Position numbers and translations under genes: made by a program
Assembly (NCBI RefSeq): GCF_900110115.1
Contig: NZ_FOCM01000001.1
Location: 62,001-126,000, forward strand
Reading direction: 5' to 3'
DNA length: 64,000 bases
DNA from: Palleronia pelagia
GTDB taxonomy: Bacteria > Pseudomonadota > Alphaproteobacteria > Rhodobacterales > Rhodobacteraceae
Shown: positions 19,936 through 62,251 of the stretch, in pieces
Layout: each line of letters opens with the position of its first letter
Numbering within the stretch: position 1 is the first letter of the stretch
The notes under the pieces: model-generated
Databases searched by the model: none
What the model saw: the letters and a program-made list of their open reading frames with translations, nothing else
What the model was told of the DNA's origin: nothing

Positions 19936-20634
19936 TCAGGCGACGCCCTGGTTGTGGCGACGGGCGACCTGGGCCTTGGCCGTTTCCACGGCGACCGCGG
20001 CATCCCGGCAATAGGCATCGGCGCCGATGGCCTTGCCGAATTCCTCGTTCAGCGGCGCGCCGCCCACCAGCACGATATAATCGTCGCGGATGCCCTTCTC
20101 GACCATGCTGTCGATGACGACCTTCATGTAGGGCATCGTCGTGGTCAGCAGGGCGGACATGCCCAGGATGTCGGGCTGTTCGGTCTCCAGCGCTTCAAGA
20201 TACTTCTCGACCGCGTTGTTGATGCCCAGGTCGACCACCTCGAACCCGGCGCCTTCCATCATCATGGCGACGAGGTTCTTGCCAATGTCGTGGATGTCGC
20301 CCTTCACGGTGCCGATCACCATCTTGCCCATGCGCGGGGCGCCCGTCTCGGCCAAGAGCGGCTTGAGGATGGACATGCCACCCTTCATGGCGCCCGCGGC
20401 CAGCAGGACCTCGGGCACGAAAAGGATGCCGTCTCGGAAGTCGTTGCCGACGATGGTCATGCCGCCCACCAGCGCCTTGGTCAGCACGTCGTAGGGCTGC
20501 CATCCGCGCTCGAGCAGGATGTTGACGCCTTCCTCGATCTCTTCTTTCAGGCCGTCATACAGGTCGTCGTGCATCTGCTGGACAAGTTCGTCATCGTCCA
20601 GTTCGCTCAGGATGATCTCTTCGTCGTCTGACAT
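19936..20634 (-). CDS. Corrinoid (B12-binding) methyl-carrier protein
   Basis: The 232-residue protein carries a methyl group on cobalamin. It has an N-terminal four-helix cap (residues about 12-100, including FVPEVLLAAGAMKGGM) and a Rossmann-type B12 domain. That domain contains GTVKGDIHDIGKNLV with the cobalt-ligand motif DxHxxG (His115 as lower ligand), then MSALLTTTM and LVGGAPLN. It resembles MtbC/MttC and the MetH B12 domain. The homocysteine methyltransferase gene nearby suggests it is the B12 part of a split methionine synthase of the kind I recall from Phaeobacter and Dinoroseobacter. An AAGGAG site precedes the ATG. Confidence 0.9.
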   Translation of the reverse strand: MSDDEEIILSELDDDELVQQMHDDLYDGLKEEIEEGVNILLERGWQPYDVLTKALVGGMTIVGNDFRDGILFVPEVLLAAGAMKGGMSILKPLLAETGAPRMGKMVIGTVKGDIHDIGKNLVAMMMEGAGFEVVDLGINNAVEKYLEALETEQPDILGMSALLTTTMPYMKVVIDSMVEKGIRDDYIVLVGGAPLNEEFGKAIGADAYCRDAAVAVETAKAQVARRHNQGVA

Positions 20635-20766
20635 CTTGCACTCCTTCTAAAGGCGCGGCGTTTCAGTTCCGTATGGCGGAACCGGCCGCGGCCAGTTGGT
20701 GATTGGCGACATGGATTGTCGATTTGGCGACGTTAAGACACTGTTTCGTCGCCCGATCTGGCATAT

Positions 20767-20781
20767 GTTCCTTTTTCGTTC
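20767..20781 (+). promoter_or_regulatory. LexA (SOS) box upstream of the radical SAM gene
   Basis: The sequence GTTCCTTTTTCGTTC is an exact match to the alphaproteobacterial LexA operator GTTC-N7-GTTC, as established for Rhodobacter. It ends 12 bases before the ATG of the radical SAM gene and overlaps a possible -10 (TATGTT at 20764-20769), an ideal place to block transcription. Confidence 0.75.
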
Positions 20782-20793
20782 TAGTCTGGCCGC

Positions 20794-21888
20794 ATGTCTC
20801 GCCGCCCTCATACCGCTCCGCCGCGCCAGCGCACGCCCGGGCGCGGCACCGACAGCAACCCCGAAACCCGTTTCGACCGCTACGCGCGGGTGGCCGAGGA
20901 TGACGGTTGGGCGGTCTCCGAGGATGAGGATCTGCCGACCCTTAGGACCGAGGTGCGGGACGAGTCGCCGCGCCGTGTCATCACGCGCAACACGTCGCCC
21001 GATATCGGCTTCGACCGGTCGATCAACCCGTATCGGGGCTGCGAACACGGCTGCGTCTACTGCTTCGCGCGGCCCAGCCACGGGTATCTCGGCATGTCGC
21101 CGGGGCTGGACTTCGAAACGCGGCTCATCGCCCGTCCCGACGCGCCCGCGCGGCTGGAGACCGAGCTGCGGCGGAAGGGCTACGCGCCCGCGACCATCGC
21201 CATGGGCACCAACACCGACCCCTACCAACCGATCGAGCGGGATCGCCGCATCATGCGCGGCATTCTCGAGGTGTTGCAGCGGTTTCGTCACCCGCTGAGC
21301 ATCGCCACCAAGGGCAGCCTGGTCGAACGCGACGCGGACATCCTGTCCGAGATGTCGGGGCAGGGTCTGGCGCGGGTCGGTGTGTCGGTCACAACGCTGG
21401 ACGCCGGGCTGGCCCGGACGCTGGAGCCGCGCGTGCCGTCGCCCGCGCGCCGGCTGAAAACGATCGAGCGTCTGGCCCGTGCCGGGGTCGAGGTGCGGGT
21501 CATGGCCTCGCCGCTGATCCCGGGCCTGACCGATCCCGAGCTCGAATCGATCCTGCAATCGGCGCGCGACGCGGGCGCGGTGGCCGCCTCGTGGATCATG
21601 CTGCGCCTGCCCTTCGAGGTGTCGGGCCTTTTCGAGGACTGGTTGGAGACCCACGCGCCGGGCCGCCGCGACAAGGTGCTGGCGCGCCTGCGCGAAATGC
21701 ATGGCGGCAAGACCTACTCGGCCGAGTGGGGGCACCGTATGCGCGGCGAGGGGGTGCACGCGGCGTTGATCGCGAAACGGTTCGATCTGGCCGTCAAGCG
21801 GCTGGGTCTGGTCGAACATCTCCCGCCTCTCAGGTGCGATCTGTTCCAGGTGCCGCTGGGCGATGCGCGGCAGCCGTCGCTGTTCTAG
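20794..21888 (+). CDS. PA0069/Rv2578c-family radical SAM protein, SplB-related
   Basis: The 364-residue protein has the radical SAM cluster motif CEHGCVYC at Cys83, Cys87 and Cys90, followed by FARPSHGYLG. The TIM-barrel half contains TIAMGTNTDPYQPIE, LSIATKGSLVERD and VMASPLIPGLTD. This matches the PA0069 family, relatives of spore photoproduct lyase whose reaction is unknown. The perfect LexA box just upstream points to DNA-damage control. The gene lies between the corrinoid protein and methyltransferase genes but on the opposite strand, and ends in the three-hairpin element. Confidence 0.9.
   Translation: MSRRPHTAPPRQRTPGRGTDSNPETRFDRYARVAEDDGWAVSEDEDLPTLRTEVRDESPRRVITRNTSPDIGFDRSINPYRGCEHGCVYCFARPSHGYLGMSPGLDFETRLIARPDAPARLETELRRKGYAPATIAMGTNTDPYQPIERDRRIMRGILEVLQRFRHPLSIATKGSLVERDADILSEMSGQGLARVGVSVTTLDAGLARTLEPRVPSPARRLKTIERLARAGVEVRVMASPLIPGLTDPELESILQSARDAGAVAASWIMLRLPFEVSGLFEDWLETHAPGRRDKVLARLREMHGGKTYSAEWGHRMRGEGVHAALIAKRFDLAVKRLGLVEHLPPLRCDLFQVPLGDARQPSLF

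Positions 21889-21954: not shown

Positions 21955-21961
<7 letters not shown>
21893..21961. repeat. Three-hairpin intergenic element, copy 1
   Basis: Three consecutive hairpins fill the space between convergent genes. Hairpin 1 has arms AAGATCAT and ATGATCTT (21893-21913), hairpin 2 arms GAGACAATC and GATTGTCTC around CCG (21917-21937), and hairpin 3 arms CACATGAT and ATCATGTG (21941-21961). Hairpin 3 overlaps the last codons of the methyltransferase gene. The linker TTCGAGAC and the exit GTCTCCGG are shared with the copy at 38963. It may terminate transcription or protect mRNA 3' ends from both sides. Confidence 0.8.
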
Positions 21962-22977
<1,016 letters not shown>

Positions 22978-23014
22978 GGTGCTTTGCTTCCCAGAATTGA
23001 TTTCCGCTGATGTG

Positions 23015-24826
23015 TCACGAATGCGCGCTGTGGACAAATGCAGATGTTTCATCATCTTCATGCGCCGGTGCCGTTTCGGGCGGTCGCGCGATGCACCACA
23101 GCAGGTCCGCCAGGCCGAGCGCAAGGGCCAGCCGGGAGGGCGCCGCGGCATACAAGGGACGCCAGCGCGGATCGAAATACGATTTGAACCGGCGCAGACC
23201 CTCGCTGCCCCGGGGCTGCCAGCGCGCCCCGTCCGCCACCGCGGCGAGGGAGACCTGGCGCATGCCACAGGCGCGCGCCGCCAGGATCGCGTGCGCGACG
23301 AGCGCGTGCATGGTTCCGTCCGGCGCCTCCGCGTCCCAGCGGACTAGGTCGAGCGTCCACTCCCGAGCGCCCTGGTGCAGCGTGATGAAGGCCACGGCGC
23401 GGCCGCGCAGACGGGCTGTGAAGACGCGCTGATGCGCCACGTAGCAGGGCGCATAGCGGCCCATGGAGACGCCGCGCGCGGGGCCGCAGGCGGCCTGCCA
23501 GGCGCGGTCGATCCGCGCCATGTCGGCGGGGCAGGCGGGGCCGGTGCCGATGGTCACGCCCGCCGTCTCGGCCTTGCGTAGCTTTCGGCGCAGCTGGCGG
23601 CACGCCGGGAGGGCGGGGTCGAAGGTGCTTGCGTCGACCACCGCCTCGGCGCCCAGCCGCAGCCGCGCCCAGCCCCGTGCCCCGAGCCGAACGGCATCGC
23701 GTTCTTCGATCTTGTAGGCGAGCGGGATACGTCCCTGTTCCCATGCCGCATCGATCAGCGTGTCGGCCCGGGTGTAGCCATCGTAGTCCGCACCGATCTG
23801 CGCCAGCGTGTGCGGTGCGGCCCAGCAGGTCGCGGCGGGCCGGCCATGGCGCAGCAGGGCCACCGCGCCGGGCTGATGCAGCAGACCGGCCTCGGCGCGC
23901 GTGGCGTCCGGCGGCGGGGCCAGTCCCGTGGCGGTTCGCGCGGGCAGGTCCGGCGCGGCGAAAAGGCTGGGGCGCAGCGTCAGCGCGGCGAGCGCCAGTG
24001 CTCCGGGCACGGCCACGTGGGCCATTCGGAACGCCATCGCCGCGCAGATGAGCGCGCCCGGCGCCGCCACCGGCAGCGACTGCGCCAGCGTCAGGTCGAA
24101 GCTGCCCGCCCCGCCCGGAAGACCCGACGCCAGGCCGGCGCCAAGGCTCAGCAGGAAGGCCGGAAGCACCTGGAGATAGGGAATCTCGGGCAGGAAGGCC
24201 CAGAACGCGCAGGCCGCGAAGCCGGCATCGGCCATGGCCCAGCCGGCGATGGTCAGCACAAGCGGAAGCGGCGGCAAGCGCCCCGCCCGGCGGTTCAGCG
24301 CCACGGCCAGCAGCCCGGCGGCCACCACGGCAAGGATGCTCCACCCCGCGATGCGCAGCGCGGTGCCGCCCAGCCCGCCCGACACGAAGCCCAATGCGGC
24401 CAGCGTGGCCAGCGCAGCCAGGAAGGCGCCGGAACTGGCGGCCGTCACCATGGCCGCGCGCCCCAGCCCCCCGGCCGGATCGCACCGCCAGCGCACCAGC
24501 AGCCCCACCAGGGGCCCCAGGCCGGTGACCTGCGTGACGCCCAACGCTGCCATCGCGCTGCGCCCGGCGGCCAGCGGGGCCCGGCGGGTGCCGAGCGCGC
24601 GGTGCACCGCGGCCTCGGACCGGGCGAAACAGCCGAAACAGGCGGCGGTGGCCGCAAGCGACAGGGCCCATTGCCCCGGCCCGATCCGGGTCAGCCGTGC
24701 CAGGATGTCGCCCAGCTCGGCCGCCGGCCACGCATCGCGTAGCGCCACCAGGAGGGCCACGGCGAGGAGCATGGGAAAAAGGCCCCGCAAGGCGGGACCC
24801 AGATACGTCGTTACTGCCTGATACAT
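23015..24826 (-). CDS. MprF-like aminoacyl-phosphatidylglycerol synthase/flippase
   Basis: The 603-residue protein joins an N-terminal membrane domain of about eight helices (residues 10-290, with SGLPGGAGSFDLTLAQSLP) to a C-terminal DUF2156 catalytic domain of GNAT fold. The latter includes YKIEERDAVRLGARGW, then CRQLRRKLRKAE and GLRRFKSYFDPRWRPLY. MprF-type proteins transfer lysine, alanine or ornithine from aminoacyl-tRNA to phosphatidylglycerol and flip the product, lowering surface charge. The amino acid used here is not readable from the sequence. It is directly upstream of the methyltransferase gene and may share its transcript. Confidence 0.85.
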   Translation of the reverse strand: MYQAVTTYLGPALRGLFPMLLAVALLVALRDAWPAAELGDILARLTRIGPGQWALSLAATAACFGCFARSEAAVHRALGTRRAPLAAGRSAMAALGVTQVTGLGPLVGLLVRWRCDPAGGLGRAAMVTAASSGAFLAALATLAALGFVSGGLGGTALRIAGWSILAVVAAGLLAVALNRRAGRLPPLPLVLTIAGWAMADAGFAACAFWAFLPEIPYLQVLPAFLLSLGAGLASGLPGGAGSFDLTLAQSLPVAAPGALICAAMAFRMAHVAVPGALALAALTLRPSLFAAPDLPARTATGLAPPPDATRAEAGLLHQPGAVALLRHGRPAATCWAAPHTLAQIGADYDGYTRADTLIDAAWEQGRIPLAYKIEERDAVRLGARGWARLRLGAEAVVDASTFDPALPACRQLRRKLRKAETAGVTIGTGPACPADMARIDRAWQAACGPARGVSMGRYAPCYVAHQRVFTARLRGRAVAFITLHQGAREWTLDLVRWDAEAPDGTMHALVAHAILAARACGMRQVSLAAVADGARWQPRGSEGLRRFKSYFDPRWRPLYAAAPSRLALALGLADLLWCIARPPETAPAHEDDETSAFVHSAHS

Positions 24827-61820: not shown

Positions 61821-62251
61821 CTTGCCCCTGCGAACGCGTTCTCCCGATCCGGCTGCGGCAGGATTTTTCCGTTGTTTTCGAGGGTTATGCGGGAGGGGCT
61901 GAGCACTGCCCTAGGCGCGAGAAGGCACGGAAGCGGTCTCTCAGGCCAGATATTCTCTGGACCTCATGACTGCGCCGATTTGGTGAATAGCTTGTAAGGC
62001 ACTGTTAAGCATGGATTTCTTTCTGCGCGACCTGAATACTTCGACTGGGGTCGCGTTCGACCACACGGAACGGAGATCGAACGTTCGCTAGCCGCCGGGT
62101 GAAGCGCACACGCCGATACAGATGTACTGCGCACAACCTGAAGCTCGACGGGAAGGGCGGGAAGCGGACCTTCGCTGCGCACTGACCCAATGACCGCTGC
62201 TGTTCTCGAAGTCGGCTCTTGACCGAGTAGCCCTCGCTTGATGTTCCGACC
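61821..62251 (+). other. 431-base region without a supported gene, after tRNA-Ser
   Basis: Short frames exist but have no ribosome sites or recognisable motifs. The stretch is less GC-rich than its surroundings in places and ends in a segment (about 62155-62205) that looks like decayed coding sequence. Lying after a tRNA 3' end it could mark an old insertion point, yet no copy of the tRNA 3' end is repeated within the window. Confidence 0.4.

What the first reader, a model, noticed from the sequence alone, without database searches (positions are those of the whole stretch)
20764..21888. A perfect LexA box controls a PA0069-type radical SAM gene of unknown function
GTTC-N7-GTTC at 20767-20781 is the LexA operator of alphaproteobacteria and stands 12 bases before the start codon, over a possible -10. 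The protein belongs to an uncharacterised family related to spore photoproduct lyase. SOS control would make it a candidate DNA-repair enzyme outside sporulating bacteria. No other gene in the window, including photolyase, shows this box.
Basis: partly seen in the sequence, partly recalled or inferred. Interest (0 to 1): 0.75.

Follow-up and report, generated by a model that had tools for sequence, protein, structure and literature searches.

The report
SOS-controlled radical SAM enzyme gene
A gene for an uncharacterised iron-sulfur radical enzyme carries the on-off site of the bacterial DNA-damage alarm, and relatives in quite different bacteria carry their own version of that site, so it is probably a DNA-damage enzyme, but not the spore-repair enzyme it is usually named after.

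Summary
GTTCCTTTTTCGTTC (20767-20781) lies 12 bases before the ATG (20794) of a PA0069-family radical SAM gene (481 bits, cut-off 360). One box alone is not significant (4 in the window, 1.65 expected), but it is conserved: 77 of 80 nearest orthologues, 38 of 41 sampled alphaproteobacterial genera, 39 of 40 further genera of the order; control windows of the same loci: 21 of 1527 and 2 of 362. Non-alpha Pseudomonadota have CTGT-N8-ACAG instead (29 of 39), and two actinobacterial Rv2578c-family relatives have GAAC-N4-GTTC or one mismatch from it. The same box precedes lexA, recA, uvrA and dnaE2 in this genome. It seems to fill a sigma-70 spacer; a leaderless start is inferred.

SOS control of this group is already in print, as a prediction, under the name splB. 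The spore photoproduct lyase analogy fails on catalytic residues: no cysteine at the H-donor position in 161 sequences; 32 have none beyond the cluster ligands. True SPL (PF20903) is over its cut-off in 5 of 299 sampled genomes, not in this one. Best reading: a LexA-repressed nucleic-acid repair enzyme with chemistry different from SPL. Regulation near certain; substrate unknown.

The parts
20759..20764 (+). -35-like element TGGCAT (order consensus TTGca.)
   Evidence: TTG starts exactly 8 nt before the box in 37 of 68 loci of the order; the window itself has TGG there; inferred promoter element
20767..20781 (+). LexA operator GTTC-N7-GTTC (GTTCCTTTTTCGTTC)
   Evidence: conserved 77/80, 38/41, 39/40
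20782..20787 (+). -10-like element TAGTCT, 17 nt after the -35-like element
   Evidence: A at second position in 57 of 68, T at last position in 49 of 68 loci; inferred
20794..21888 (+). PA0069-family radical SAM protein, 364 aa; start codon probably also the transcription start (leaderless, inferred)
   Evidence: NF033668 481.5 bits, Pfam Radical_SAM 66 bits
21040..21063 (+). [4Fe-4S]/SAM motif C83-x3-C87-x2-C90
   Evidence: the three cysteines are invariant in 161 of 161 aligned proteins
21205..21225 (+). G-T-N-T-D-P-Y motif at the place where SPL has its H-donor cysteine
   Evidence: 0 of 161 have Cys at residue 139; T141 and D142 in 161 of 161; the correspondence to SPL is by motif, not by a full alignment

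Best explanation
The gene is a member of the SOS regulon. In undamaged cells a LexA dimer sits on the direct-repeat operator inside the promoter spacer and blocks RNA polymerase; when RecA filaments on damaged DNA trigger LexA self-cleavage, a leaderless mRNA is made. The product is a radical SAM enzyme with an SPL-like barrel that makes a 5'-deoxyadenosyl radical and most likely reverses or processes a damaged base or nucleic-acid adduct. It does so without SPL's cysteine H-donor, so its lesion and chemistry differ from spore photoproduct repair. Shown by comparison: operator, its conservation, its change with the LexA motif, fold, missing residues. Inferred: LexA binding, promoter elements, leaderless start, DNA as substrate.
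For: Box in 77/80 nearest orthologues, 38/41 sampled alpha genomes of 41 genera, 39/40 further genera of the order. Within 300 nt of the match the first two counts are 76/80 and 37/41. Spacers other than 7 reach at most 12/80, 2/41 and 11/40; the reversed pattern CTTG-Nk-CTTG at most 3/80 and 4/41; same-locus 510-nt windows give 21/1527 and 2/362. All 6 misses in the first two sets keep a one-mismatch site. Non-alpha: 0/39 alpha box, 29/39 CTGT-N8-ACAG against 2/348 control windows; one of the other 10 has TTAG-N6-TACTA. Named records, 6 of 28 fetched: P. denitrificans, S. meliloti, S. parapaucimobilis (alpha box), A. caviae (gamma box), Streptomyces GAAC-N4-GTTC and Arthrobacter one mismatch. 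Own-genome boxes at lexA, recA, uvrA, a PcrA-type helicase, dnaE2, PdeM. Box-to-start distance exactly 12 in 35/68. In one genus (L150) the gene stands head to head with TIGR03916, a putative DNA-repair radical SAM gene, over a shared box. SPL structures rank 2 and 3 in Foldseek with the highest query TM of the 50 rows shown, 0.52-0.53 over 305 columns. S. venezuelae vnz_31145 'Radical SAM protein' is listed in a LexA regulon table with a LexA site at -61 and the numbers 19.97 and 1.31, the first of which I read as the mitomycin C RNA-seq fold change (PMC9380542, passage without column heads); its family was not checked.
Against: No binding, expression or activity data for this gene. 9 of 39 non-alpha orthologues show no exact match to any LexA motif tried. 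Two of the alpha sites lie far out (-397 in L063, -415 in L137), and the L150 site may belong to the divergent gene. SOS regulons also contain genes that do not repair DNA. No repair-gene neighbourhood as a rule: of ten own-genome proteins searched in 160 loci, only lexA (5 Ruegeria, about 6 kb downstream) and TIGR03916 (1) among SOS genes turned up. The best Foldseek E-value is NifB, not SPL. Published D. shibae and Caulobacter LexA studies do not name it in the main text. The genome also has two PF03441 (photolyase-type) genes.
Confidence: 0.6

Rival explanations
1. SOS-controlled radical SAM enzyme that does not repair DNA: it modifies RNA, a protein or a nucleotide as part of the damage response.
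For: The radical SAM core is generic: Foldseek also returns NifB (best E-value), lipoyl synthase and RiPP maturases, and the weak profile matches in the PDB include SkfB, NifB and MoaA. No nucleic-acid-binding domain was reported in the family scans.
Against: SPL structures have the best query TM (0.53, 305 columns) of the rows shown. Control by LexA in lineages with different LexA motifs fits a role at damaged DNA.
Confidence: 0.27
2. A true spore photoproduct lyase used outside spores, as the published name splB implies.
For: Fold similarity; the literature names the SOS-controlled gene splB (PMC3323433 sections 7-8; PMC8565304 passages); one PA0069-family gene (G213) rings weakly, below cut-off, with the SPL model (E 3.3e-4), so distant kinship is real.
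Against: PF20903 (SPL) is over the cut-off in 5 of 299 sampled genomes, all one genus, and has no match in the own genome at E 1e-3, while NF033668 is over its cut-off in 111 of 299. No Cys at the SPL H-donor position in 161 sequences; 32 of 161 have no Cys beyond the cluster ligands; the Y99 position is Phe here and in 132 of 161. That the spore photoproduct forms mainly in spore-type DNA is recalled.
Confidence: 0.09
3. The box is a chance match, or serves the divergent corrinoid-protein gene (19936-20634, -) instead.
For: A single match is within chance; the divergent start is 132 bp from the box.
Against: The corrinoid gene was found in only 35 of 160 loci while the box is kept in 77/80 and 38/41; box-to-start distance of exactly 12 in 35/68 on the radical SAM side.
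Confidence: 0.02

Closest known systems
SOS-regulated 'splB' of alpha- and betaproteobacteria (Sanchez-Alberola et al. 2012, PMC3323433)
   Same: Homologue of SPL with predicted LexA sites, in an alphaproteobacterial set that includes P. denitrificans and S. meliloti (figure legend; which species have the site was not visible). The PA0069-family genes of P. denitrificans and S. meliloti carry the alpha box, so this is very probably the same gene.
   Different: The paper reads it as photoreactivation and says it is not observed in gammaproteobacteria; here Aeromonas caviae has the CTGT-N8-ACAG box, and the family lacks SPL's catalytic Cys.
Spore photoproduct lyase (PF20903; PDB 4fhc, 4k9r)
   Same: Radical SAM motif and fold (query TM 0.53); the Tyr before the third cluster Cys (Y97 in B. 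subtilis, by motif) kept as Y89 in 161 of 161.
   Different: No C141 equivalent; Y99 position is Phe in this protein (29 of 161 have Tyr); not matched by the SPL family in the own genome.
Rv2578c family radical SAM protein of actinobacteria (NF038135)
   Same: Next best NCBIfam family (221 bits); Streptomyces and Arthrobacter members carry actinobacterial-type LexA sites, the second with one mismatch.
   Different: Separate NCBIfam family whose cut-off (430) is not reached here; different LexA motif.
TIGR03916 rSAM_link_UDG
   Same: Another radical SAM protein annotated as putative DNA modification/repair, with the alpha LexA box in 30 of 30 loci examined in the order.
   Different: Different family; present in 31 of 61 sampled genomes of the order against 125 of 149 for PA0069.

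Membership tests
PA0069 family radical SAM (NF033668) | Score over curated cut-off, full length | tested here: met
   481.5 bits vs 360, profile 2-348 of 348
PA0069 family radical SAM (NF033668) | CX3CX2C cluster motif | tested here: met
   C83, C87, C90 invariant in 161
LexA/SOS regulon of alphaproteobacteria | GTTC-N7-GTTC operator at the promoter, conserved at orthologues | tested here: met
LexA/SOS regulon of alphaproteobacteria | Host has lexA and recA under the same box | tested here: met
   L166 lexA (two overlapping boxes) and L213 recA
LexA/SOS regulon of alphaproteobacteria | LexA binding and induction by DNA damage | not testable with these tools
   needs EMSA or ChIP and transcript data
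Spore photoproduct lyase | SPL-type radical SAM barrel | tested here: met
   Foldseek 4k9r E 5e-6, TM 0.53/0.56; model mean pLDDT 75, low at 1-50 and 92-105
Spore photoproduct lyase | Match to SPL family model PF20903 | tested here: not met
   no match in own genome at E 1e-3
Spore photoproduct lyase | H-donor cysteine (C141 in B. subtilis) | tested here: not met
   no Cys at residue 139 in 161; 32 of 161 lack any further Cys; the profile alignment to SPL covered only residues 170-284, so the position rests on motif correspondence
Spore photoproduct lyase | Y99 (Bs) after the cluster motif | tested here: not met
   F91 here; F 132, Y 29 of 161; position by motif
Spore photoproduct lyase | Repairs spore photoproduct | not testable with these tools
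   biochemical assay needed

The most novel reading that the evidence does not exclude
PA0069/Rv2578c proteins are an ancient, general SOS enzyme that reverses a DNA lesion by radical chemistry without a protein thiyl step: a direct-repair activity not yet known, kept under LexA in at least three lineages with different operators, and hidden in the literature under the borrowed name splB.
Probability: 0.35. Interest if true: 0.82.

Novelty: new member of a known kind. Interest (0 to 1): 0.5.

Why it matters
It separates two things that the name splB has fused: a regulatory fact (this radical SAM family keeps a LexA site with great steadiness) and an assumed function (spore photoproduct or 'photoreactivation' repair) that the catalytic residues do not support. 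That turns an old label into a testable question: which lesion does an SOS-induced radical SAM enzyme without SPL's cysteine repair? The family was over the curated cut-off in 111 of 299 sampled genomes of the phylum, so an answer would apply widely.

Tried and rejected
Chance motif: rejected by conservation and by spacer and position controls. Control of the divergent corrinoid gene: rejected, since that gene was found in only 35 of 160 loci. A shared lexA promoter in Ruegeria, where five boxes include a reverse-oriented one and lexA is in the locus: rejected, lexA is about 6 kb downstream. Repair-gene neighbourhood: little (the all-against-all clustering there was swollen by spurious ORFs in high-GC DNA and is not used as evidence). 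PDB by sequence: no SPL among the hits with the single protein or the profile up to E 10. Profile-profile comparison with three SPLs: weak, 35% probability, C-terminal part of the barrel only; a first SPL alignment used the wrong strand for one row and was replaced. A4 (five SPL-like proteins) was not used further. The gene caller behind the split of 85 own-genome sites (22 upstream, 57 inside, 6 other) is home-made, and uvrA, the helicase and dnaE2 were scored on pieces cut by the fetched stretch.

Literature: 'PA0069' is in 3 held papers, of which two were opened at the passage (strain construction; a microarray list that also holds uvrA, PA0669 and PA0670) and one only seen in the listing. 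That P. aeruginosa PA0069 belongs to the LexA regulon of Cirz et al. 2006 is recalled, not seen. The D. shibae and Caulobacter LexA papers do not hold splB, radical SAM or photolyase in their main text (supplements not seen); the P. aeruginosa papers opened gave nothing on it. None of the listings of ten searches, most of them aimed at regulation and all of open-licence papers only, showed work on the activity of a PA0069-family protein.

Sampling limits: the alphaproteobacterial sets overlap in part (contigs of the same length, e.g. L042/L158 and L015/L284), so counts are not added up and the 161 proteins are partly redundant. Of the 72 alpha genomes over the cut-off (own included), 41 others were fetched, one per genus; genus g55 was left out. 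All 39 non-alpha genomes over the cut-off were fetched. Of the 125 genomes, 40 were fetched, one per genus not yet seen; about ten genera were left out. The one miss in that set (L279) has only about 46 nt of contig upstream of the gene.

Full report
What is there. The window holds GTTCCTTTTTCGTTC at 20767-20781 and, 12 nt later, the ATG of a 364-aa ORF (20794-21888). The protein is a PA0069-family radical SAM protein (NF033668, 481.5 bits, cut-off 360). The divergent upstream gene (19936-20634, -) is a B12-binding (corrinoid) protein and the downstream gene (21955-23268 as listed, -) a homocysteine S-methyltransferase. The nearest public relative found is Palleronia salina (99% identity).

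Chance. The motif occurs 4 times in the window where shuffles give 1.65 +/- 1.28, and 85 times in the 3.85-Mb genome, against 39 for the pattern read backwards. By itself the box is weak evidence. A home-made gene caller puts 57 of the 85 inside genes, 22 upstream of genes and 6 elsewhere. The upstream ones include lexA (two overlapping sites), recA, uvrA, a PcrA/UvrD-type helicase, dnaE2, a weak ImuA match, PdeM and the TIGR03916 radical SAM gene (two sites); others are not at recognisable SOS genes (for example a DctP solute-binding protein and a VWA protein). So this is the LexA site of this organism, as far as comparison can say.

Conservation. 77 of the 80 nearest orthologues have the perfect motif within -400 to +60 of the match; 38 of 41 genomes sampled across the class, one per genus, have it within -450 to +60; within 300 nt the counts are 76 and 37. 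39 of 40 further genera of the order have it, the miss being a contig end. Controls: other spacers (3-12) reach at most 12/80, 2/41 and 11/40, the pattern read backwards at most 3/80 and 4/41, and same-size windows elsewhere in the same loci give 21/1527 and 2/362. All six misses of the first two sets hold a one-mismatch site. Four Ruegeria loci have the motif only in the opposite orientation; lexA lies in those loci too, but about 6 kb downstream, so the box is not lexA's.

The operator changes with LexA. In 39 non-alpha genomes of the phylum the alpha motif is absent (0/39) but CTGT-N8-ACAG is present in 29, against 2 of 348 control windows. One of the remaining ten has TTAG-N6-TACTA, recalled as the Xanthomonas LexA motif; nine show no exact match to what I tried. 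Named plasmid or chromid records agree: Paracoccus denitrificans, Sinorhizobium meliloti and Sphingomonas parapaucimobilis have the alpha box, Aeromonas caviae (a 4.9-Mb record filed as a plasmid) CTGT-N8-ACAG, and the Rv2578c-family genes of a Streptomyces and an Arthrobacter GAAC-N4-GTTC exactly and with one mismatch (six of the 28 listed records were fetched). The same regulation written in different operator sequences is hard to explain except by selection for LexA control.

Promoter. Aligning 68 of 76 loci of the order on the box (the others lack a plus-oriented box in range or enough upstream sequence) shows TTG exactly 8 nt before the box in 37, A at +16 in 57 and T at +20 in 49, and the start codon exactly 12 nt after the box in 35 (the first in-frame start after the box was taken, which favours short distances). 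This is a -35 / 17-nt spacer / -10 layout with the operator in the spacer, and the start codon about 7 nt after the -10. I infer a LexA-occluded promoter with a leaderless mRNA. In the window the elements are TGGCAT (20759-20764, so not the majority TTG) and TAGTCT (20782-20787).

The protein. The AlphaFold2 model (38 sequences, mean pLDDT 75, residues 1-50 and 92-105 below 50) finds NifB at rank 1 by E-value and SPL at ranks 2 and 3 with the highest query TM-scores of the 50 rows shown (0.52-0.53, 305 columns); the other rows have 0.39 or lower. SPL repair uses C141 as H-donor and Y99/Y97 (PMC5368176, passages). Among 161 PA0069-family proteins only C83, C87 and C90 are invariant cysteines; residue 139, which by motif takes C141's place, is never Cys; 32 proteins have no other Cys (N-terminal ends before the BLAST match were not included); the Y99 position is Phe in 132 and Tyr in 29; the Y97 position is Tyr in all. 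Comparison with three SPLs found in one alphaproteobacterial genus (L236-L238; L236 matches 4fhc at 5e-60) aligned only part of the barrel, so the residue mapping rests on motif correspondence; the count of proteins without any spare Cys does not depend on it.

SPL proper is rare here. PF20903 is over its cut-off in 5 of 299 sampled genomes of the phylum, all of one genus, and has no match in the own genome; NF033668 is over its cut-off in 111 of 299. Of the 117 genomes with any NF033668 match all but two show a single one. So the 'splB' reported under LexA in alphaproteobacteria is very probably this family.

A link. In L150 the PA0069 gene stands head to head with a TIGR03916 gene over one box, and TIGR03916 genes of the order carry the box in 30 of 30 loci (31 matches in 61 genomes, the best 30 fetched). 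Two different radical SAM proteins, both annotated towards DNA repair, are thus LexA-marked in the same order.

What was known. Sanchez-Alberola et al. 2012 (PMC3323433; sections 7 and 8 read) predicted LexA control of splB in alpha- and betaproteobacteria, stated that it is not observed in gammaproteobacteria, and read it as photoreactivation. PMC8565304 (passages) lists SplB/COG1533 in Bacteroidetes SOS networks; PMC7739468 (section 10) a radical SAM protein in the Gram-positive core; PMC9380542 (passage) a Streptomyces venezuelae radical SAM gene with a LexA site and the value 19.97, read here as the mitomycin C fold change. PMC3765255 (passages) links SplB-like proteins to ImuB-C operons. 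PMC3925955 (passages) supposes that a SplB-like protein is the main photolyase of a Paracoccus. What this report adds: the count across lineages, the gamma-type site in Aeromonas, the promoter layout, and the mismatch with SPL catalysis.

Judgement. SOS control of this gene: about 0.95. A nucleic-acid repair or processing role: about 0.6. Spore photoproduct as substrate: under 0.1. The finding is a good confirmation of a published class of prediction plus a correction of its functional label.

Noticed in passing
L175 / G000:C6:220455-221603: A second radical SAM gene (TIGR03916, 'putative DNA modification/repair') has two LexA boxes in this genome, and 30 of 30 loci of the order examined have the box.
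   Followed up: partly
L150, around the PA0069-family start: PA0069-family gene and TIGR03916 gene head to head, about 83 nt between match starts, with one LexA box between them.
   Followed up: partly
L189:1494-1754: A 74-aa DUF3072 gene has GTTCCTTATTTGTTC 21 nt before its start: a possible small SOS protein of unknown function.
   Followed up: no
L231:831-1508: PdeM (ligase-associated DNA damage response endonuclease) has a LexA box overlapping its start.
   Followed up: no
L232:1093-1508: A 132-aa OB-fold protein resembling the C-terminal end of error-prone polymerase (profile 945-1039 of 1047) starts beside a LexA box.
   Followed up: no
window 20666-20682: Inverted repeat GTTCCG-N5-CGGAAC about 31 nt upstream of the divergent corrinoid gene; possibly its operator (read).
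   Followed up: no
window 62068-62082: The 15-mer GTTCGATCTCCGTTC, in no predicted gene, recurs identically at G000:C22:2281-2295.
   Followed up: no
L003, L005, L006, L012, L013: In five Ruegeria loci lexA lies about 6 kb downstream of the PA0069-family gene, on the other strand; four of them have the box only in reverse orientation.
   Followed up: partly
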